This document shows, piece by piece, positions 539-19,995 of a stretch of 34,813 bases of DNA; positions within the stretch are counted from its first letter, which is position 1; each line of letters starts with the position of its first letter. This DNA is from Deltaproteobacteria bacterium (GTDB taxonomy: Bacteria > Myxococcota_A > Polyangia > JAAYKL01), in NCBI GenBank assembly GCA_030621515.1, contig JAUXHN010000022.1, forward strand, positions 1 to 34,813. Reading direction: 5' to 3'. The notes below the pieces were generated by a model. That model saw nothing but the letters and a program-made list of their open reading frames with translations, made no database searches and was not told the origin of the DNA. A program made the position numbers and the translations under genes.

Positions 539-1075
539 ATGGACTTTGAACAACCCAAACCCGACTCCAAGAAGTACTCCGACCTGATAAGCGAGATAAA
601 CAAAGGCATAATCAAAGTACCCAAGTTTCAACGCGACTTCGTCTGGAGCATTGATAAAACCGCGAAGCTTCTGGACAGCATCCTCAAGGGCTATCCCATT
701 GGCACCTTCATCTTGTGGCAAACAGACGAGCGAATAAACGACATCAAGAATGTGGGCAACCTGCCGCTGCCTCGCACGCCAGACGGTAATAAAGTCCAAT
801 ATGTCCTTGATGGCCAGCAGCGTATTACGTCTCTCTTTGCTGCTTATTGTGGTGCCCAAATTCAGAAGGTCGGCGAGAAGAAGGTCACCGACTACAAAAA
901 CATTTACGTGAATCTAGATGTGGATATTTCCGAAAACGATGACCAGGTGATCTCGGCAGAACCCATCGGTGAGAAGTATCTCTCGCTAAATGACGTTCTC
1001 AATTTTTCGTACGGAAAAGCCAAAGAACTTTCCGATAGTTTCACAGAGGAAGAGCTGAACTTGGTGAACAGCTAG
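539..1075 (+). pseudogene. Truncated DUF262 (GmrSD N-terminal-type) protein
   Basis: The start is well supported: AAGGAG at 525-530 lies 8 nt before ATG 539. The 178-residue product has the DUF262 hallmarks: VPKFQRDFVW near residue 27 (the QR motif) and YVLDGQQRITSLF near residues 83-95 (the DGQQR motif, proposed nucleotide binding/hydrolysis in GmrS-like proteins). DUF262 proteins act in defence against modified phage DNA and normally run to about 500-700 residues, with an HNH (DUF1524) nuclease or another effector at the C-terminus. Here the protein stops right after ELNLVNS, before the usual I-N-x-G-G region. A second reading frame carrying an AlbA_2 domain begins at almost the same point, which suggests an internal deletion with frame loss. 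The segment is more A/T-rich than its flanks, consistent with acquisition by transfer. Confidence 0.75.
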
Positions 1076-1562
1076 CGATGAAGTAGCGGAGCGCATATTG
1101 GGCGGAGAAAACGAATCGGTGGAATTCAAGGCCACCCTCCGCTATGACCTGCGTCAAAGAGTGGTGAACAAGAAGCTGGAGTTTGTCATTGCCAAGACAA
1201 TCGCTGCTCTGCTGAACAGCAGTGGTGGAGATCTATTCATAGGTATCGACGATGATCAAAACGCTCTGGGACTGGCCGAAGACATCGCCACTTTATCAAA
1301 GAAAAAAAACATAGACGGTTTTGAGTTGCAGCTGATTGAGGTGATCAAGAAATACATTGGCAACGAATACAGCTCCCGCATCAAAATCACCTTTCCCACA
1401 ATCGATCAGAAACAAATATGTCGAGTCAACACATCGCCAAGCAGCAGCCCGGTCTTCGTGAAATTTGAAGACAAAGAGGACTTTTTCGTCCGCCATGGCT
1501 GCAGCTCTCAACCCCTGAGCCGCGAAGAGCAAAGTGCTTATGAGAAAGAACATTGGGGATAA
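1068..1562 (+). pseudogene. Schlafen AlbA_2 (putative DNA/RNA-binding) domain fragment
   Basis: The open frame begins directly after a TGA at 1065-1067. The first usable start is TTG 1098, with no good Shine-Dalgarno sequence. Reading from 1068 gives SDEVAERILGGENESVEFK, which resembles the middle of a longer protein entering an AlbA_2 domain. Domain signatures are ESVEFKATL, NSSGGDLFIGIDDD with a following LGL, and FFVRHGCSSQPLS, ending in HWG. AlbA_2 domains are often C-terminal modules of nuclease, helicase or transcription-regulator proteins. Here the upstream partner would be the DUF262 fragment, whose stop at 1075 overlaps this frame. I infer that the two were once one polypeptide and that the middle was deleted. 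A stand-alone AlbA_2 gene using TTG 1098 is possible but less convincing. Confidence 0.65.
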
Positions 1563-11830: not shown

Positions 11831-12382
11831 TTGGAAGGGAATAAGCCGATCTTTTTCAAGCTCACAACGATCTCGATACTGCTGCTGTTGCTGTACAGCG
11901 CATGTGGATCCGTCAACACATTCGAGGACTTCGATCCGGCGGTCGATGAGGATATCGGGGCGGGAGAGAACAGTGACCTGGACGCTGGAACGGACGCAGC
12001 CGTTCATGGAGATCCATGCTCTGCAAACAATCCCTGGGACTGCAATCCGCTGGCGGACTACTCTGTCGATCCACCTGTCAACGAGGGCTGCGAGGGAACC
12101 AATGTGTCATGCGACTACTGGGAACCGATATCCGGATTCACCTGTCTCCTGGACGCCACGGAAGCCCTCGAAGATATCTGCGATGTCGATAATGGTCCGT
12201 GGTGCACGGCAGGCACAACCTGTCTGGCGACCGGCGGAGCTTCGAGCGGAATCTGTGTGAAGTTCTGTTGCGGCGCGCAGGACTGCGATCCACTCGAGAG
12301 CTGTATCCCGGGCGATTGGCCCAACGTGACCGGAGACCTGGGATACTGCCTTGCTCCGGACGGAGGTATAGACGCCGGTTAA
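11831..12382 (+). CDS. Cys-rich lipoprotein of unknown function
   Basis: The reading frame clearly contains a lipoprotein signal (FFKLTTISILLLLLYSACG, lipobox YSAC) followed by an acidic spacer and a Cys-rich body (CSANNPWDC, CEGTNVSC, CDVDNGPWC, CVKFCCGAQDCDPLESC). The start codon is uncertain. TTG 11831 is the nearest ordinary candidate but lacks a Shine-Dalgarno sequence. GGAAGGG at 11833-11839 is well placed for an ATC codon at 11849, directly before FFKLTT. The body resembles secreted Cys-rich proteins of myxobacterial-type genomes, with many likely disulfides. No enzyme motif is seen. It ends convergently with ddl, sharing the TTAA at 12379-12382. It is possibly co-transcribed with the beta-propeller lipoprotein 98 nt upstream. 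Confidence 0.75.
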   Translation: MEGNKPIFFKLTTISILLLLLYSACGSVNTFEDFDPAVDEDIGAGENSDLDAGTDAAVHGDPCSANNPWDCNPLADYSVDPPVNEGCEGTNVSCDYWEPISGFTCLLDATEALEDICDVDNGPWCTAGTTCLATGGASSGICVKFCCGAQDCDPLESCIPGDWPNVTGDLGYCLAPDGGIDAG

Positions 12383-13287
12383 CCCACGTGCAATCGCGCA
12401 CGTTCCATCATCCTGGACACGAGATCCACAAAGGGTGTTCCTCCCTGGGCGGCTATTTCCGGCAGCAGGCTGGTCGGCGTCATTCCCGGAATGGTGTTTA
12501 CCTCCAGGATCACCGGCGGATCTTCTCGCGGAAGGATGAGATCGATTCGGGCAGCCCCGGCGCAGCCGACTGCAACGAAAGCACGCGCTCCGAGATCGCA
12601 TGCCCGGTCGATGGCGTCTCGATCCATGCGGGGAGGTATGTGATGTGTGGAGCCGCCTTGTTCATACTTGGCCCCGTAGTCGTAGAATTCCCGGTGCGGC
12701 TCGATCTCCACGGAGCCGAGCACTTCTCCGTCGATTACAGCCACCTGTACCTCTATCCCGGGCACGTATTTCTCCACCAGGGCGCGTTTCGAACAGGACA
12801 GGGCCTTTCGGATGGAGGCCTCCAGATCATCCATTTCCCGCACGATGCTCACACCCACGGATGATCCCTCGTTCACCGGCTTGACAACCACGGGGAGCGA
12901 GAGGCCGCCGGCAAGCGTGACATCCGCGTTGGTGACAACAATCCCCGGAGCCACATTCAGGCCGGCCGATGCAAGGATATCCCTGGTTCGCGATTTATCC
13001 ATCGCAAGAGCGGAAGCCAGGGGGCCCGAACCGGTGTAGGGGATCCCCATGACTTCGAGCATTCCCTGGACGGTTCCGTCCTCACCCCACCTGCCGTGAA
13101 GGGCGATGAAGACAGCCTCTACATGGGCTTGACGAAGCTGCCTGTCCAGCTCCCTCGTGGCGTCGATCCGGATGACTTTATAACCTGTTTTATAGAGCCC
13201 GTCAGCCACCGCCTCGCCGCTCTTGAGCGAGATCTCGCGCTCCGCAGAGATCCCTCCCATCAACACACCCACCCGTTTGAATCTCAT
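12379..13287 (-). CDS. ddl: D-alanine--D-alanine ligase
   Basis: The ligase joins two D-Ala with ATP to make the terminal dipeptide of peptidoglycan precursors in the cytoplasm. The start is ATG 13287, because GGAGG lies 5 nt upstream; the open frame extends 8 codons further but without ribosome-binding support. The 302-residue product has the full ATP-grasp arrangement: VGVLMGGISAEREISLKSG (N-terminal substrate site), FIALHGRWGEDGTVQGMLE, GIPYTGSGPLASALAMDK, PVVVKPVNEGSSVGVSIV (ATP-grasp loop), ALVEKYVPGIEVQVAVI, and RIDLIL followed by VILEVNTIPGMTPTSLLP with the metal-binding Glu and Asn. Length and motifs are typical. It is divergent from the HARE-HTH gene and is not part of a visible mur cluster. 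Confidence 0.96.
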   Translation of the reverse strand: MRFKRVGVLMGGISAEREISLKSGEAVADGLYKTGYKVIRIDATRELDRQLRQAHVEAVFIALHGRWGEDGTVQGMLEVMGIPYTGSGPLASALAMDKSRTRDILASAGLNVAPGIVVTNADVTLAGGLSLPVVVKPVNEGSSVGVSIVREMDDLEASIRKALSCSKRALVEKYVPGIEVQVAVIDGEVLGSVEIEPHREFYDYGAKYEQGGSTHHIPPRMDRDAIDRACDLGARAFVAVGCAGAARIDLILPREDPPVILEVNTIPGMTPTSLLPEIAAQGGTPFVDLVSRMMERARLHVG

Positions 13288-13444
13288 TGAAACCTCCATT
13301 CGTATCCCCAATGATGTACCAACGCACGATGAGGGGATCCATATTTCGGCACATTACCTCCGCAATAGAGGTGAGGTTTTTTGGAACGGCTCGTGATCAG
13401 TGTGATATTAGAGATGCGAATTCAAACTGGAGGCAAGTTCCAAT

Positions 13445-14746
13445 ATGATATTTACCGAAGCGGCCCTCGAAGTTCTCGAGCGCGAGGGCCGACCGATGCA
13501 TGCGAGGGAGATCGCCGACAAGGCGGTCGAATGGAATCTTCTGTCCCATGTGGGTAAGACGCCGGTGCAAACCATGTCCGCGCGGATCTCCGCGATTGTG
13601 TCGAAGGGGCGTGGAGTGGGGCCGTTCGTGCGCGTGAGGCCGGGTGTTTTCGCTCTGGTGAAATGGGGCGGCGCCCCTCCAGGTGGCGCCGCGCCGCAAA
13701 AGCAGAGTCTCCCAAAGACAAAAGACGCCGAGGTGATGGACAAACCCGAGCAGCAGGCCGGGGAGGGAACATCATCGACGCGCAAGCGCAGGCGACGCAG
13801 AAAGAAGAGACGCCCCGAGGAGGTCGCGGAAGCGAACGGAAAGGCTCTGCCCGAGAAGAAAGCACCCGAGAAGAAAGCACCCGAGAAAAAAGCGCCCGAG
13901 AAGAAAAAACCACCCGAGAAAAAAGCACCCGAGAAAAAAGCGCCCGAGAAGAAAAACCTGTCCTCGCCGCCACCTCCCGCGAACAATGAAAGTGAGATCA
14001 CCGATCGTGTGGAGAGCATGCTCAGGCAGCAGACCAAGCCGGTTCAGCCGGCCAAGCTGGTGGCACACTTCGGGCGGGAGGGACGCAGATGGGTCCAGCT
14101 CCTCGAGGCCTTGCTGGCTGCCGATGGGATCGAGCGCGAGCACCGAGGTCTGCGACCGAGGTTCGTCGAGCACCGCAATGGATGGGCTCTTGCCGCTCGG
14201 GAGGTGAGCTCGGAGATCGTAGAGTTGGAGAGCCAGGTGTCCGACGCAGCGCAAAGGCTTGCTCATATCGCCGGTCGCCAGGTGTTGAGAAAGATCCGCA
14301 GCCTGCCGATGAACGCATTCGTTCGCGTGGTCATCCTGTTCCTGCGGCGCTCTGGGTTCGGTGAGATGGCATCGGTCAACAGGGGATCGGGGCAAGAGGT
14401 TCATCTTTCGGTTCAGGACAGGCGAAGGGGAGGGCGTTTCAACACGGCGGTGGTGGTCAGACGTGATTCCCCCAACAAACCCGTGGATGAGAGCGCCATT
14501 ACCGATCTGCGCGGCGCAATGCACCATTACGACTCCATGCGGGGAATGATAATATCAACCGGTGTTTTCAACGATCGCGCGCGTTCGGAGGCTCTGGTTC
14601 CAAACCTTTCCCCGGTTGTTCTTGTGGATGGGGAGACCTTCACGGGAGATCTGGTGAAGCTGGGAATAGGAGTGCGGAAACGCAACGTCAACCTCCCGGC
14701 GTTCGACGACGCCTTCTTCACATCGCTGGGGTCCAGGGATACATGA
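13445..14746 (+). CDS. HARE-HTH protein with PEKKA linker and degenerate Mrr-like C-terminal domain
   Basis: GGAGG (13429-13433) lies 11 nt before ATG 13445. The 433 residues divide into four parts. Residues 1-76 resemble a HARE-HTH winged helix (AALEVLEREGRPMHAREIAD and ARISAIVSKGRGVGPFVRV), a module also found in RpoE delta, ASXL and restriction enzymes. A basic low-complexity linker contains seven PEKKA-like units (about residues 136-171). A second helical, possibly winged-helix region covers about 180-270. A C-terminal domain at about 280-420 has the layout of an Mrr_cat nuclease (FLRRSGFGEMASVNRGSGQE, RGAMHHYDSMRGMIISTGVF). The usual acidic and Q/E-x-K catalytic positions appear as EVHLSVQD and VVVRRD, so cleavage activity is doubtful. 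It overlaps the next kinase gene by ATGA. I infer DNA binding and possibly regulation by the kinase. Confidence 0.8.
   Translation: MIFTEAALEVLEREGRPMHAREIADKAVEWNLLSHVGKTPVQTMSARISAIVSKGRGVGPFVRVRPGVFALVKWGGAPPGGAAPQKQSLPKTKDAEVMDKPEQQAGEGTSSTRKRRRRRKKRRPEEVAEANGKALPEKKAPEKKAPEKKAPEKKKPPEKKAPEKKAPEKKNLSSPPPPANNESEITDRVESMLRQQTKPVQPAKLVAHFGREGRRWVQLLEALLAADGIEREHRGLRPRFVEHRNGWALAAREVSSEIVELESQVSDAAQRLAHIAGRQVLRKIRSLPMNAFVRVVILFLRRSGFGEMASVNRGSGQEVHLSVQDRRRGGRFNTAVVVRRDSPNKPVDESAITDLRGAMHHYDSMRGMIISTGVFNDRARSEALVPNLSPVVLVDGETFTGDLVKLGIGVRKRNVNLPAFDDAFFTSLGSRDT
13850..13957 (+). repeat. In-gene tandem repeat (seven 15-18 nt units) encoding PEKKA
   Basis: The consensus unit CCCGAGAAGAAAGCA begins at 13850 and recurs in phase at 13865, 13880, 13895 (18 nt), 13913, 13928 and 13943, with synonymous A/G variation. 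It lies in reading frame and encodes the basic linker of the HARE-HTH protein. Unit number could vary by slippage. Confidence 0.9.
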
Positions 14747-17292
14747 GCCCGCTTTCGCGCAGTTCTTGTTTTACCTTCAGCGACAGGGAGATGCCCGTAC
14801 GCTTCGGACGATACCATCTACTGACAAGGATCGGGATCGATCCGGTCGGAGAGGATTTCCTGGCAGCGTGGGGTGTAGATGAGGGTGTCGATCAACTGAG
14901 GGTTGTTCGGTGTGTATATCCGGTCATTGCCGAGGAAAACGAGTTCGTCGCGCTGTTCTCCGAGGAAGCTCGGTCTCTTTCGAGGCTTTCGAGCACGAAT
15001 GTCGTTCGGATCATGGAGGTGGGCATCGAGGGGAAGATACCGTTCGTCGCCCGAGAGCACGTGGAGGGGTTGAACCTTGAGCGATTGATCATGCTCGCGC
15101 AGGGACGAACGGCTCTGTGGCCGTGGGAGCTGGCGGCCTATGTGACGACGGAGATACTGAGGGGGCTCGATTACGTACACCGGCGGGAGGATTTGCACGG
15201 CAACCCCATGGGAATGAGGCACGGAGATATCAGGCCGGCTAATATACTCGTTTCCTTGAACGGCGAGGTCAAACTGGCCAATTTCGGGTCCACCCTGAGG
15301 TTCATCGCAGACGAGAAAACCAACGCCCGTTTGAGCGATATCCGCAACCGGTACTTTCCGCCGGAGGGAATCGACGAGGTAGAACCGACGGTCGATGCGG
15401 ATCTGTGGGGCGTCGGCCTGATCTTCGTGATGTTGCTGGGCGGCAGAATTCCCTCCAAGCAGAGCGGCGAGCACGATGTACCCTGGATGCCGCCTCAGAT
15501 GTCGTTCAGAGTGGAGTCCTTGCCCGATGTGGTGGACACGTTTATCGGTCGAACTCTCAACCCGGATCCCTCTTTCCGTTTTTCAACGGCCAGGGAGATG
15601 CGCGCTACGCTCCTGCAAGTGATGCAGACTCACGCGAAGGGACATCCGCCCGACGATCTCGCTGACTGGGTCGTGGAGCTGGGTCAGGCCGAACGGAGGT
15701 CCGAGGAGGAGTTGGTTCGCCGCCTGCTCGGGAAAGAGGCGCAGATCCAGCTCGATGAGACCGCTGACGGAACCGGCGCGCTCGCTGTGGGGCACGTGCT
15801 GGACGGCCGGTATCACCTGCTGCGGAAACTCGGGGAGGGTGGAATGGGTATGGTGTTCGAGGCGGATCATCTCGGCCTTGGAAGAAAAGTGGCGGTAAAG
15901 GTGCTCCACGATCGTGTGCTCGACGAAGAGAACACGGTAGAGAGGTTCAGGCGGGAGGCGCAGATCATCGGTTCTCTCGGCCATCCCAACATCGTGGGCG
16001 CGCTCGACTTCGGGACCACATCTGAGGGGTACCACTACCTGGCCATGGATCTCCTGGAGGGGAAGTCACTCACGGAGCGCATCGAAGACGGATCCCTGAC
16101 TTCGAGGGAGCTCACGGCGATCATGGCCGAGGTTTGTGACGGCTTGCAGGCCGCACATGACGCCGATGTGATCCACCGGGACCTCAAGCCCGACAACGTA
16201 TTCCTCACACCGACCGGTGCGAGAATCCTGGACTTCGGCATCGCCAAGAGCACCGGGTTGGACAAGGAAGCCGAGGCCCTCACGCGCACGGGTCACATCT
16301 GCGGCACGGTGGACTACATAGCGCCGGAGCAGATCAGGGGCCTGTCCCAGGATCCGCGCTCGGACATCTACGCGGCGGGGGTGATCATCTACGAGGCCCT
16401 CACTCAAACCACGCCTTTCAAGGGGCGCACTGTGGGGGAGACCCTGCACAAAGTCATAAACGACAAGCTGGTCTCGCCCCGCAAGAGGAGTGGCGACAAG
16501 ACCATTCCTGCCGATCTCGAGGCCATATGCATGAAGGCACTCAACCGACGGGCGGACAAGCGTTTTTCCAGCGCCGCTGAGATGGCGTCGGCCCTGAGGG
16601 CTCTTCTGCCCCCGCCGGGTGAAACCGCCGATATGATGGATTCAGGGTCGTGGGAAAAGGGGTCGTGGAAGCTCGGGATCGTCGCTGGTGTCGCGCTGGC
16701 GTTAGGGGTCGCCGCCTGGTTCGTTTCGAGCGGGTACCTTGAGGAGGATGAACCTCTGGCCAGCGTTGGAGTCGAGGACGAGGGTGAAGAAGATCGGGTA
16801 AAGGCGGCCGTCGACACCTCCGGGGGACCGGTGGTTATGATCCCGCCGGACGCCGGGAACAAGCCTGCCGTGAAGGACCGGGCATCTTCGAAGGACGATC
16901 CCGTGGAATCCGGTAGCGTCGAAAAAGAAGATGCCAGGGCACTGGCCCGGGACAAGGTGAAATCGGGGGAAGCTGCGCTTGCGAGGATGGACATCTCCGG
17001 TGCGGTGCGAGCCTTCGAGGAGGCCATACAGCTCGATTCCAGAAACAGCCGGGCCTGGTACGGGCTGGGCAAAGCCGCCTTCCAACGGGGTGATTACAGC
17101 GTTGCCGTCGACAAGACCGAGCGGGCGTTGCGGCTCTCTCCCGCCAACGTATCCAGAAGGATCTTTCTGGGAAAAATCTTCCTTGCCGCCGGACAGAAGG
17201 CCGATGCCGCCGCCCAGTTCAGGCGCGTACTCGCCACCCATCCCGGCAATGAAAAAGCCGCGAAACTGCTCAAGAAAACAGATCCTGACTGA
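14743..17292 (+). CDS. Tandem pseudokinase-Ser/Thr kinase membrane protein with TPR domain
   Basis: ATG 14743 overlaps the stop of the HARE-HTH gene, giving translational coupling. Of 849 residues, about 20-300 form a first kinase-like domain that looks degenerate: the glycine loop is IGIDPVGEDF, the VAIK lysine region reads RVVRCV, HRD is HGD (H160-D162, with N167 kept) and DFG is NFG (N180). Residues about 353-620 form a second, complete Hanks-type kinase: GEGGMG (364-369), VAVK with Lys386, HRDLKPDN (478-485), DFG (497-499) and GTVDYIAPEQ. A transmembrane helix follows at about 643-662, then an acidic spacer, then TPR-like repeats at about 740-840 (AVRAFEEAIQLDSRNSRAWY). The kinase half is cytoplasmic and the TPR part lies across the membrane. 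Paired pseudokinase and kinase suggest allosteric control. Substrate inferred, not shown: the coupled HARE protein. Confidence 0.92.
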   Translation: MSPLSRSSCFTFSDREMPVRFGRYHLLTRIGIDPVGEDFLAAWGVDEGVDQLRVVRCVYPVIAEENEFVALFSEEARSLSRLSSTNVVRIMEVGIEGKIPFVAREHVEGLNLERLIMLAQGRTALWPWELAAYVTTEILRGLDYVHRREDLHGNPMGMRHGDIRPANILVSLNGEVKLANFGSTLRFIADEKTNARLSDIRNRYFPPEGIDEVEPTVDADLWGVGLIFVMLLGGRIPSKQSGEHDVPWMPPQMSFRVESLPDVVDTFIGRTLNPDPSFRFSTAREMRATLLQVMQTHAKGHPPDDLADWVVELGQAERRSEEELVRRLLGKEAQIQLDETADGTGALAVGHVLDGRYHLLRKLGEGGMGMVFEADHLGLGRKVAVKVLHDRVLDEENTVERFRREAQIIGSLGHPNIVGALDFGTTSEGYHYLAMDLLEGKSLTERIEDGSLTSRELTAIMAEVCDGLQAAHDADVIHRDLKPDNVFLTPTGARILDFGIAKSTGLDKEAEALTRTGHICGTVDYIAPEQIRGLSQDPRSDIYAAGVIIYEALTQTTPFKGRTVGETLHKVINDKLVSPRKRSGDKTIPADLEAICMKALNRRADKRFSSAAEMASALRALLPPPGETADMMDSGSWEKGSWKLGIVAGVALALGVAAWFVSSGYLEEDEPLASVGVEDEGEEDRVKAAVDTSGGPVVMIPPDAGNKPAVKDRASSKDDPVESGSVEKEDARALARDKVKSGEAALARMDISGAVRAFEEAIQLDSRNSRAWYGLGKAAFQRGDYSVAVDKTERALRLSPANVSRRIFLGKIFLAAGQKADAAAQFRRVLATHPGNEKAAKLLKKTDPD

Positions 17293-17311
17293 AAATGACC
17301 CCTGAAAAGCC

Positions 17312-18631
17312 TTAATCCGGCTGGTAGATGCGGTCCCGGTCCTTGCCGGTGGCGTAGTATTTCCACATACGGTCGAAGGTGACGGCGCCGAAGAGGTTGA
17401 CGAGGATCGAGAAAACAACCCCCGCCACCAGCAACTTGCCGAACCTCCGACCTCCCACAGCCAGCATCAGGACGAGGATCGGAGTGTAATCCAGGGAGAA
17501 TCTGTATCCGAACTGAACCCACCCGCTGTTCTGGTATAGCAAGCTCGGAAGGGCGATGAGCGCAACCGTGAAGGCCGCCCACATGTAGTGCCGGGTTCGC
17601 TGCGCGGGCCAGAGGAGCCACAGGAATACCGGGGTCGTGAACCACAGAGCCAGGCCGTGGAGGCTCACCTTGATGTGGGGAGACTCGGCCGAGATCCAGG
17701 GCAGGGACGTGAACACTATCCCCAGGTTGCGGGGAAGATAGTGGTAATGAAAGAGTCCCCACTTGGCTATTCTGGCGGTCTGCCTGACCTTGAGGTGGCC
17801 GTGCCCGAACTCGAACGGATCGTCGAATCGCGTCCAGTTCATGAGCATCAGCAACCCTATGATCGCGAGGATGGGGATCCCGAACAGGACTACCCGCCGG
17901 ACTATCCTTGCAAAACCGGCGTTCCTCAACGCCGATGACACCCACCCGAAGAGGTTGCCGGCGTCAGCGGCGGCGTGAGGCCGGAGCATCTCGTAAAGGA
18001 AAAGCGGAAACGCCATCAACATGGGTGGCCGACAGGCGAAAGCCAGCCCCAAGAAAAGCCCCGCGAGGATTGGTCGCCGGCCGTCGAGGGAGAGGATGAG
18101 GTGTAAAAGTAACATCACCGAGCCCGTGATATGGGCGGTGTACCAGACGGATCCCTGGACCGCGCTGAAGAAGTAGACAGTCCCCAGGGCGTAAAGCGCG
18201 GCGAGCAGTCCCAGCTCCCATGGCTTGCGCGATATACGGCCTCGCGAAGCCATCATCTGCAGAAGGAGCAGCAGGAGCGCGGGGGCGACGGCGGCGAGCA
18301 GCAGCGTGAATACCCGATCGTTGAAGTCCAGGCCCCATACGGCGACGCCGGGCATCATCAGGACCGCGGGGGCCGGCGGGAACGAGACGTACCACTTGTC
18401 CTCGTATTGGGCCCAGTCGTTTCGATGAGGCGGATTGCCCTCGATGTGGAACCTGCCGTCCAGCATCGCCTCGGCCATGTAGACGTAGTGATTGTCGTGG
18501 GAGCTCTCATCCAGGCGATCCCACATGGTCACTGCGAAGACCGCGAGGCAAAGCACGTATGCGATCAACGGTCCCTTGACGAGAGCAAGGAAGCCGACTG
18601 TCTTGCGAGATTTTCGATTCTCCACGCTCAT
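17312..18631 (-). CDS. Polytopic membrane protein, GT-C glycosyltransferase-like
   Basis: The start is placed at ATG 18631 (MSVENRKSRKTVGFLALV), where the first transmembrane helix follows a basic stretch. The open frame continues upstream through Pro/Cys-rich, non-membrane sequence, and no Shine-Dalgarno sequence supports either choice. The 439-residue product has about 10-11 hydrophobic helices. The first extracytoplasmic loop contains acidic residues (RLDESSHDNHYVYM) and a FHIEGNPPHRNDW/WYVSFPPAPAVLMMP arrangement seen in GT-C-fold glycosyltransferases and ArnT/PMT-like relatives, which use lipid-linked sugars. The exact donor and acceptor are unknown. It ends 20 nt from the convergent kinase gene and is divergent from the REC-histidine kinase. 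The family assignment is by general resemblance only. Confidence 0.68.
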   Translation of the reverse strand: MSVENRKSRKTVGFLALVKGPLIAYVLCLAVFAVTMWDRLDESSHDNHYVYMAEAMLDGRFHIEGNPPHRNDWAQYEDKWYVSFPPAPAVLMMPGVAVWGLDFNDRVFTLLLAAVAPALLLLLLQMMASRGRISRKPWELGLLAALYALGTVYFFSAVQGSVWYTAHITGSVMLLLHLILSLDGRRPILAGLFLGLAFACRPPMLMAFPLFLYEMLRPHAAADAGNLFGWVSSALRNAGFARIVRRVVLFGIPILAIIGLLMLMNWTRFDDPFEFGHGHLKVRQTARIAKWGLFHYHYLPRNLGIVFTSLPWISAESPHIKVSLHGLALWFTTPVFLWLLWPAQRTRHYMWAAFTVALIALPSLLYQNSGWVQFGYRFSLDYTPILVLMLAVGGRRFGKLLVAGVVFSILVNLFGAVTFDRMWKYYATGKDRDRIYQPD

Positions 18632-18744
18632 TGGAGGGGATGGTGCATGACAGGAAGGGGAGGTGTCAAATTGCCCACCGCAGCGCGGGGGACAGGGGAT
18701 TGACCCTTCTGCTCGCACAGGTAGTGAGTACATGGTAAAAGGAT

Positions 18745-19995
18745 ATGATGCTGAAGGTTCTACATATCGAGGATGATCCAAACCTCCGCCAGCTCGTGAA
18801 GAAGGTCTTGAGCGCTGACGGATTCACGGTGGTGAGCACAATCGATGGTGTGACCGGCATCAAGACCGCGCTGGCCGCTCAGCCGGATATCATACTTGTA
18901 GACATCGAACTGCCCGACATGGACGGATATGAGGTGACGCTCAAGCTCCGCGGCGAGATCGAAGGGCATGACGTGCCCATCGTCGCAGTGACCGGGAAGG
19001 GCGACAAGAATATGATCGAAGCGGTGGGGTGCGACGGTCACATCTTCAAGCCGATAGACGTGGCGAAGTTGCCCGGGCAGGTCCGTTCTTTCCTGCGCGC
19101 GGGCAGGAAAGCTGCCTCGAGGAGAGTCCAGGACACCAAAACATCTTCCAGGGACGACCTGCTTCGCGTTCAGGGACAGAAAATCGCAGGACGATTACAG
19201 GCGAAGATCGAGGAGCTGGAGAAGGCCAACAGGCTATTGCTGGAATCCGAGAAGGTGCGCTCGGAATTCTATCGAAACCTTTCCCACGAGCTCTCCACGC
19301 CGCTGACACCCGCAGTGGGATATCTCAACATGTTGCTGGGTGGGGAACTCGGTCCCCTCGATCCGCTCCAGTTACGTTCGTTGGAGTCCGTTAATAGGGG
19401 GATCACCAGGGTGAGGGCCGTTGTCGAGAACCTCCTGGACATGACGGCGTTGACTACCGGAAAAATGACCTTCTTCGCTAGATTCTACGATTTCAACCGG
19501 CTTGCCAGGGAGTCCATCAATTTGTGCGAGGATAGTTTTGCCCAACGAGGGATCACCCTGGAAATCGCCATCCCCGAAAAAATGCACAAGGGTTTTGGCG
19601 ATCCGGACAAGCTCAAGCGGGCCATGGTGCAACTTCTGGAGAACGCGGTGAAGTTCTGTCGCGGGGACGGCAAGGTGCACGTCTGCACGCGCCGGGAGCG
19701 GGAGCGCCTTTCATTTCTGGTCTACGATTCGGGGAAGGGGATTCCGAAGGACGAGCTCCAGGCCATCTTCAAAACTTTCTACCAGATAGACGGTTCACCT
19801 ACCCGCGAGCACGGCGGGGCGGGGTTGGGACTGGCTCTTGCGCGCAAGATAGTCGAGCGCTTCGGCGGCGAGATCTGGGCGGAGTCGCCACCCGCGGGAG
19901 AGGCGGGCCGACTCCAGTGGGCCAATACGATGGTGGGACTCTGGGTACCGGAGCGAATGATCGAGGACGAAAATATCGGCACTGACAAGGAGTAA
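18745..19995 (+). CDS. Hybrid response regulator-histidine kinase
   Basis: AAAAGGA (18737-18743) precedes two adjacent ATGs (18745, 18748); either may be used. The 416-residue soluble protein opens with a REC domain (about 1-125): VLHIEDDPN acidic pocket, phospho-acceptor Asp53 in ILVDIELPDMDG, AVTGKG threonine and FKPID lysine. A coiled coil (about 150-172) leads to a HisKA domain with His181 in NLSHELSTPLTPAVGYLNML. An HATPase_c domain follows: QLLENAVKF (N box), VYDSGKGIP (G1) and GGAGLGLALARKIVERFGG (G2). There is no transmembrane segment, so it receives input through its REC domain or by docking. An REC-first layout is typical of phosphorelay intermediates. No partner regulator is present in the window. 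Divergent from the GT-C-like gene. Confidence 0.92.
   Translation: MMLKVLHIEDDPNLRQLVKKVLSADGFTVVSTIDGVTGIKTALAAQPDIILVDIELPDMDGYEVTLKLRGEIEGHDVPIVAVTGKGDKNMIEAVGCDGHIFKPIDVAKLPGQVRSFLRAGRKAASRRVQDTKTSSRDDLLRVQGQKIAGRLQAKIEELEKANRLLLESEKVRSEFYRNLSHELSTPLTPAVGYLNMLLGGELGPLDPLQLRSLESVNRGITRVRAVVENLLDMTALTTGKMTFFARFYDFNRLARESINLCEDSFAQRGITLEIAIPEKMHKGFGDPDKLKRAMVQLLENAVKFCRGDGKVHVCTRRERERLSFLVYDSGKGIPKDELQAIFKTFYQIDGSPTREHGGAGLGLALARKIVERFGGEIWAESPPAGEAGRLQWANTMVGLWVPERMIEDENIGTDKE

What the first reader, a model, noticed from the sequence alone, without database searches (positions are those of the whole stretch)
13445..17292. Coupled operon of a HARE/Mrr-like DNA-binding protein and a pseudokinase-kinase-TPR membrane protein
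The ATGA overlap forces translation in fixed ratio. The kinase has an N-terminal degenerate kinase domain (HGD, NFG) and an active second domain, then a TM and TPRs. A membrane sensor that phosphorylates a nucleoid-facing HARE protein is a plausible new signalling or defence unit.
Basis: inference. Interest (0 to 1): 0.55.

Follow-up and report, generated by a model that had tools for sequence, protein, structure and literature searches.

The report
Kinase paired with dead-nuclease DNA-binder
Two neighbouring genes in an uncultured myxobacterial relative encode a DNA-binding protein built from a dead restriction enzyme and a membrane protein kinase with a built-in inactive kinase copy; the pair stays together across one bacterial family and looks like a signalling switch on a DNA-binding protein, not a phage-defence system.

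Summary
ORF 13445-14746 (433 aa) and ORF 14743-17292 (849 aa) overlap by ATGA. The second has a degenerate kinase domain (HGD/NFG), an active one (Lys386, HRD, DFG), one TM helix and TPRs.

In the window's family, 12 of 14 genomes have both genes and 2 have neither; the pair is adjacent in 11 of 12. Outside the family no orthologue of the kinase was found (0 of 303 genomes of the class), and HARE was never directly followed by a kinase. The HARE gene is widespread and mostly single-copy (HARE domain in 243 of 317 genomes), often divergent from a D-Ala-D-Ala ligase gene. So a lineage-specific kinase has been coupled to an old core DNA-binding protein.

Most likely: a membrane sensor kinase that tunes a chromatin/transcription factor by phosphorylating its linker. 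Novelty: new variant of a known kind.

The parts
13445..14746 (+). HARE / winged-helix / inactive Mrr-type DNA-binding protein, 433 aa
   Evidence: single copy in G000
13445..13666 (+). HARE-HTH domain (residues 1-74)
   Evidence: Pfam PF05066 7.5e-18; model matches the delta subunit RpoE, Z 7.9 over 1-77
13673..13990 (+). disordered basic linker with K/R patch (TRKRRRRRKKRR) and PEKKA repeats; SST just before the patch
   Evidence: pLDDT about 40-50; 15-bp tandem repeat 13850-13954; composition
13991..14203 (+). second, divergent HARE-like winged helix (residues 183-253)
   Evidence: hhalign to N-terminal HARE profile, prob 95% over 73 columns; structure like ScpB/TM1602, Z 9
14303..14674 (+). 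PD-(D/E)XK Mrr-type domain without catalytic residues (residues 287-410)
   Evidence: Pfam Mrr_cat 6.8e-15; fold AF1548 Z 13.0, AspBHI 12.7; Asp, Gln and Lys of E. coli Mrr replaced
14743..14746 (+). ATGA stop/start overlap
14743..17292 (+). pseudokinase-kinase-TM-TPR membrane protein, 849 aa
14806..15642 (+). pseudokinase domain; HGD at 15220-15228, NFG at 15280-15288
   Evidence: motif table; 12 of 12 family orthologues
15811..16575 (+). active PknB-like Ser/Thr kinase domain; Lys386 at 15898-15900
   Evidence: PF00069; motifs intact 12 of 12
16672..16728 (+). transmembrane segment (residues 644-662)
   Evidence: hydropathy peak 2.19, found in 12 of 12 orthologues
16966..17271 (+). C-terminal TPRs, predicted outside the cytoplasm
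   Evidence: Pfam TPR_2 1.4e-12, TPR_19, TPR_16
12382..13299 (-). D-Ala-D-Ala ligase gene, divergent from HARE: anchor of the old locus, not part of the pair
   Evidence: Pfam; divergent upstream in 34 of 69 loci and 21 of 47 non-family loci
18745..19995 (+). receiver-HisKA-HATPase hybrid, another anchor of the old locus
   Evidence: Pfam; same cluster as genes at +2 to +5 of HARE elsewhere

Best explanation
The two genes form a signalling unit specific to one uncultured Myxococcota family. The first product is a core DNA-binding protein (two HARE-type winged helices, a histone-like basic linker and a nuclease fold reused for DNA binding). The second is a one-pass membrane Ser/Thr kinase: the TPRs outside the cytoplasm sense or bind a partner, the pseudokinase sets the activity of the neighbouring active kinase, and the active kinase phosphorylates the DNA-binding protein, most likely at Ser/Thr beside the basic patch of the linker, weakening its hold on DNA and changing gene expression. 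Shown here: architecture, conservation, loss of both catalytic sites, linkage, selection. Inferred: DNA binding itself, topology, sensing, substrate, phosphosite, effect on DNA binding.
For: Adjacent on one strand in 11 of 12 family genomes that have both genes; the two family genomes without HARE also lack the kinase. In G006 and G007 the pair is kept although ddl lies on another contig. Kinase orthologues score 498-609 bits in 12 family genomes; the best hit in the 303 other class genomes is 214 bits. Pseudokinase: HGD 12/12, DFG Asp lost 12/12, beta-3 Lys replaced 11/12; active kinase intact 12/12; first domain intact in 3 distant tandem kinases. dN/dS 0.09 for the pseudokinase, 0.05-0.10 for the kinase, 0.06-0.15 for the dead Mrr domain. 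The family's linkers are half as acidic as those of orthologues without the kinase (0.133 v 0.267, 12 v 33 proteins) and richer in Ser/Thr near the basic patch (0.137 v 0.062).
Against: No phosphorylation data. The genome has about 50 Pkinase stretches. In G009 the two genes are on different contigs. The linker differences are confounded: the family is one clade and has lower GC (mean 0.56 v 0.67), some of the 12 have little Ser/Thr near the patch (G006 0.04, G007 and G010 0.07), and p-values ignore relatedness. The SST beside the patch is not conserved beyond the genus. The two gene trees are too poorly resolved to test co-inheritance fully. G004 and G011 are incomplete assemblies (90% and 71%).
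Confidence: 0.5

Rival explanations
1. Co-transcription without a kinase-substrate link: the HARE protein autoregulates or is simply co-expressed, and the kinase acts on other proteins, for example envelope proteins such as the product of the third gene that follows in half of the family.
For: A third, apparently exported about 310-aa gene follows the kinase in 6 of 12 genomes; ddl, a cell-wall gene, is next door; bacterial Ser/Thr kinases often have many substrates (recalled).
Against: Both genes are present or absent together, and in G006 and G007 the two stay together away from ddl. In the window's genus the third gene is elsewhere, yet the pair persists.
Confidence: 0.27
2. The kinase half works mainly as a membrane anchor: it binds the HARE protein and tethers nucleoid DNA to the membrane, phosphorylation being secondary.
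For: One-pass membrane protein with a conserved pseudokinase that could act as a binding platform; partner with several DNA-binding-type domains and a basic linker.
Against: The active kinase is under strong purifying selection with all catalytic motifs kept, which a pure anchor does not need.
Confidence: 0.12
3. A phage-defence or type IV restriction unit (HARE/Mrr reader-nuclease controlled by a kinase).
For: HARE and Mrr domains occur in restriction systems (passages read in PMC10853773 and PMC11037411); tandem inactive-active kinases occur in DndF; PADLOC candidate PDC-S02 hits the Mrr-like part at 2.8e-17.
Against: Catalytic residues gone in 45 of 45; HARE domain found in 243 of 317 class genomes, mostly once, at a conserved locus with ddl; PADLOC kinase hits are to families that match kinase domains in general (inference).
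Confidence: 0.06

Closest known systems
E. coli Mrr (type IV restriction enzyme; NC_000913.3, L205)
   Same: C-terminal domain homologous over about 160 residues, E 1.8e-19, hhalign prob 98.2%
   Different: D and QxK catalytic residues replaced; two HARE-type winged helices and a basic linker instead of Mrr's N-terminal part
RNA polymerase delta subunit RpoE (HARE-HTH)
   Same: N-terminal HARE fold; core, non-nuclease use of a HARE domain
   Different: RpoE's acidic tail (recalled) is replaced by a basic linker plus winged helix plus Mrr fold
Mycobacterial HupB (HU with histone-H1-like tail)
   Same: Basic repeat region for DNA binding; phosphorylation is thought to lower its DNA binding (passages in PMC5676037)
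   Different: Unrelated folded domains; kinase not encoded next door (recalled)
DndF kinases (tandem inactive and active S/T/Y kinase), and PglW
   Same: Inactive copy followed by an active kinase domain (DndF; passages in PMC10853773)
   Different: No P-loop kinase, nuclease or wHTH in the same chain; has TM and TPRs; not in a restriction locus
PASTA/PknB-type Ser/Thr kinases (NF033483)
   Same: Best NCBIfam hit, 391.8 bits; one TM, C-terminal sensor
   Different: Below the curated cut-off of 450; TPRs instead of PASTA; extra pseudokinase
Catalogued bacterial Ser/Thr pseudokinase families (PMC12599244)
   Same: Degraded motifs, membrane proteins common
   Different: The passages read describe other families (for example EssB/YukC, MviN, GLW, DLHK), and the text holds no 'tandem', 'TPR' or 'Myxococc'

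Membership tests
HARE-HTH domain proteins (PF05066) | HARE-HTH domain above Pfam cut-off | tested here: met
   65.1 bits v 25.9; 45 of 45 relatives match at E 0.01
Active Mrr-type restriction endonuclease | Mrr_cat / PD-(D/E)XK fold | tested here: met
   Pfam 55.6 v 21 bits; AF1548 Z 13.0, rmsd 2.1 A over 111 residues
Active Mrr-type restriction endonuclease | catalytic Asp and (E/Q)xK | tested here: not met
   Asp column and QxK columns replaced; 0 of 45 keep them
Phage-defence / type IV restriction system | sporadic, mobile distribution or defence neighbourhood | tested here: not met
   HARE domain in 243 of 317 class genomes, mostly once; ddl synteny
Phage-defence / type IV restriction system | protects against phage | not testable with these tools
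   needs a plaque assay
Active Hanks-type Ser/Thr kinase (second domain) | Gly loop, VAIK Lys, HRD, DFG | tested here: met
   12 of 12 orthologues
Pseudokinase (first domain) | loss of at least one of VAIK Lys, HRD, DFG | tested here: met
   DFG Asp lost 12/12, HRD to HGD 12/12 (Asp kept), Lys replaced 11/12
Pseudokinase (first domain) | no phosphotransfer | not testable with these tools
   needs an assay
PASTA kinase (NF033483) | curated score cut-off | tested here: not met
   391.8 v 450 bits; C-terminus is TPR
RNAP delta subunit (RpoE) | HARE domain followed by acidic tail | tested here: not met
   linker 14% acidic and strongly basic in the window protein
Kinase-substrate pair | kinase phosphorylates the HARE protein | not testable with these tools
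   needs a kinase assay

The most novel reading that the evidence does not exclude
The HARE / winged-helix / dead-Mrr protein is an unstudied, near-universal myxobacterial chromatin or RNA-polymerase-associated factor made from a restriction enzyme (its nuclease fold also superposes on the RPB5 jaw of RNA polymerase II). One family has evolved a dedicated membrane pseudokinase-kinase, replacing the constitutively acidic linker of its relatives by a phosphorylatable one: a domesticated restriction enzyme turned into a kinase-controlled DNA switch.
Probability: 0.3. Interest if true: 0.68.

Novelty: new variant of a known kind. Interest (0 to 1): 0.42.

Why it matters
If right, it gives a natural comparison: the same core DNA-binding protein with and without a dedicated kinase. 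It would show how a restriction-enzyme fold was domesticated into a chromosomal factor in myxobacteria and how a Ser/Thr kinase with an internal pseudokinase acquired it as a target. It also gives one lead on what the very many myxobacterial Ser/Thr kinases act on.

Tried and rejected
Defence reading: PADLOC and NCBIfam hits are domain-level only; rejected on dead catalytic site, distribution and synteny.

An apparent kinase directly after HARE in L129 (48.8 bits) has no Pfam family at E 0.01: rejected as spurious, probably a low-complexity match.

PDB sequence search with the HARE protein alone gave nothing at E 1; the structural comparison did. The ranking there rests on single domains, and Z values near 8 may be only common arrangements; the RPB5 resemblance (Z 8-9) is kept as a speculation.

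The pseudokinase domain model is poor (mean pLDDT 61.6; residues 1-83 under 50; 12 sequences), so no fold search was made with it. Gene trees give only shallow agreement (genus g1 and genus g4 groups); G010 and G008 are long branches in the HARE tree. The Ser/Thr enrichment near the basic patch (p 0.0012) and linker acidity (p 1.3e-6) are descriptive, because the family is one clade with lower GC. Consensus promoter and terminator scans were uninformative. The home-made gene caller fails in some GC-rich loci (for example L075/G006, L129, L153, L154), so adjacency was taken from six-frame ORFs. 11 of the 80 genome-contig loci gave no callable HARE ORF and are left out of its counts; 10 of the other 69 belong to the window's family. 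Of the 59 non-family loci, 6 end less than 1.5 kb after HARE; the other 53 have at least 1.9 kb (lengths and coordinates).

Papers: the 2012 HARE-HTH paper is not held; it is known here only from its citation. A search for papers holding both HARE-HTH and Myxococc found 0; HARE-HTH alone 51, of which 25 listed; bacterial pseudokinase terms 16, 10 listed.
Full report
WHAT IS THERE. Two + strand ORFs, 13445-14746 (433 aa) and 14743-17292 (849 aa), overlap by ATGA. The start at 14743 is supported by the conserved FTFSDxEMP N-terminus of relatives. The first protein is HARE-HTH (1-74), a disordered basic linker (about 77-182, with a K/R patch and an in-frame 15-bp PEKKA repeat), a second winged helix (183-253) and an Mrr-type domain (287-410). 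The second winged helix is a divergent copy of the HARE domain by profile-profile comparison (95% over 73 columns). The AlphaFold model has mean pLDDT 81.1 with the three domains mostly above 90. The Mrr-type part superposes on AF1548 (Z 13.0, 2.1 A, 111 residues), AspBHI (12.7) and MspJI (11.2); the N-terminus on RpoE (7.9); the middle on ScpB and TM1602 (about 9).

DEAD NUCLEASE. Against E. coli K-12 Mrr the C-terminal profile scores E 1.8e-19 and hhalign 98.2%. The Asp of Mrr aligns with Ser322 and the QxK with Val337-Val338-Arg339. In the 45-protein alignment no protein has Asp at the first place or (E/Q)xK at the second. The domain remains under purifying selection (dN/dS 0.06-0.15 in the two comparisons with G000), so it is used for something other than cutting DNA (inference).

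THE KINASE. The first kinase domain has HGD for HRD and lost the DFG Asp (Asn in 11, His in 1) in 12 of 12 family orthologues; the beta-3 Lys is Arg in 11 (Lys in G010). The catalytic Asp of HRD is kept (HGD). The second domain is intact in 12 of 12. Three distant tandem kinases outside the family have an intact first domain, so the degeneration probably belongs to this lineage. One TM segment follows at 644-662, present in 12 of 12, then TPRs, predicted outside the cytoplasm (inference from one TM and cytoplasmic kinases). Pseudokinase dN/dS is 0.09 in both comparisons with G000.

CONSERVATION OF THE PAIR. In the window's family (14 genomes with the window's own), HARE is found in 12 and missing in G004 and G011. 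The kinase orthologue is in the same 12, at 498-609 bits; the best hit in the 303 other genomes of the class searched is 214 bits. The genes are adjacent on one strand in 11 of 12; in G009 they are on different contigs. The overlap is exactly 4 bp in 4 of 11, gaps of 3-18 bp in 6 and 177 bp in G007. In G006 and G007 the pair is kept although ddl lies on another contig. About 50 Pkinase stretches in G000 mean that one adjacency could be chance, but not this conservation.

OUTSIDE THE FAMILY. A scan of genome contigs gave 80 loci, titled Myxococcota, Myxococcales, Deltaproteobacteria, Bradymonadaceae and so on. 69 have a callable HARE ORF, 59 of them outside the family; 53 of the 59 have at least 1.9 kb downstream and none has a kinase directly after HARE (the one apparent case, L129, has no kinase by Pfam). 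The HARE domain is in 243 of 317 class genomes, 149 of 178 good ones, nearly always once (only the N-terminal domain was searched there, after two failed searches with the full alignment). ddl is divergent upstream in 34 of 69 loci by ORFs and directly so in 21 of 47 non-family loci by called genes. The receiver-histidine-kinase hybrid at 18745 belongs to a cluster lying at +2 to +5 of HARE in 19 cases. So the HARE gene is an old resident, and the kinase was added next to it in one family.

THE LINKER. The basic patch (7 or more K/R in 12) is in 10 of 12 family and 31 of 33 other proteins. Family linkers are less acidic (0.133 v 0.267) and have more Ser/Thr near the patch (0.137 v 0.062), while Ser/Thr in the folded parts is the same (0.107 v 0.107). 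Phosphate replacing constitutive acidity would fit, but the family is one clade with lower GC, so this is only a lead.

HOW IT PROBABLY WORKS. Sensor outside, pseudokinase as regulator, active kinase inside, DNA-binding protein as substrate, phosphate at the linker lowering DNA binding. Shown: parts, catalytic states, conservation, linkage, selection. Inferred: everything from sensing to effect. Confidence 0.5. The main rival is that the kinase acts elsewhere; in 6 of 12 genomes a third, apparently exported protein gene follows, which lies elsewhere in the window's genus.

WHAT IS KNOWN. Passages of PMC10853773 describe HARE domains fused to REase domains as modification readers and DndF with tandem inactive and active kinases. 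Passages of PMC12839542 describe PglW kinases. Passages of PMC12599244 describe bacterial pseudokinase families, without the words tandem, TPR or Myxococc in the text. Passages of PMC5676037 suggest that phosphorylation may lower DNA binding of HupB, which has an H1-like tail. No held paper has both HARE-HTH and Myxococc. The kinase is below the PASTA-kinase cut-off.

VERDICT. Observation confirmed; signalling reading partly supported; defence not supported. New variant of a known kind; interest 0.42.

Noticed in passing
window 539-1562: A GmrSD N-terminal domain fragment (2.6e-25) and a Schlafen AlbA_2 protein (1.9e-15) next to each other at the left edge: possible remnants of a defence island.
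   Followed up: no
window 12379-19995: Old class-wide locus: ddl divergent from HARE, with a receiver-histidine-kinase hybrid downstream; in the window the kinase gene and a membrane-protein gene (17312-18781, no Pfam family) sit in between.
   Followed up: partly
L073 6116-7039, L074 12104-13039, L077 9851-10792, L080 5043-6023, L081 13594-14538, L082 1657-2583: A third operon gene, an apparently exported about 310-aa protein with no convincing Pfam family, follows the kinase in 6 of 12 family genomes; the window genome's best relative is at G000:C186:574-1443, away from the pair.
   Followed up: partly
L170 10001-12436: A record titled Comamonas sp. KCTC 72670 carries a HARE protein very similar to those of Myxococcus loci (L165), so the record may be mislabelled or contaminated.
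   Followed up: no
L144, L099, L117, L157: In four loci, two of them titled Bradymonadaceae (L099) and Lujinxingiaceae (L144), the gene directly after HARE is a conserved about 240-aa protein that looks like lipoyl transferase LipB (name recalled from its sequence, not tested).
   Followed up: no
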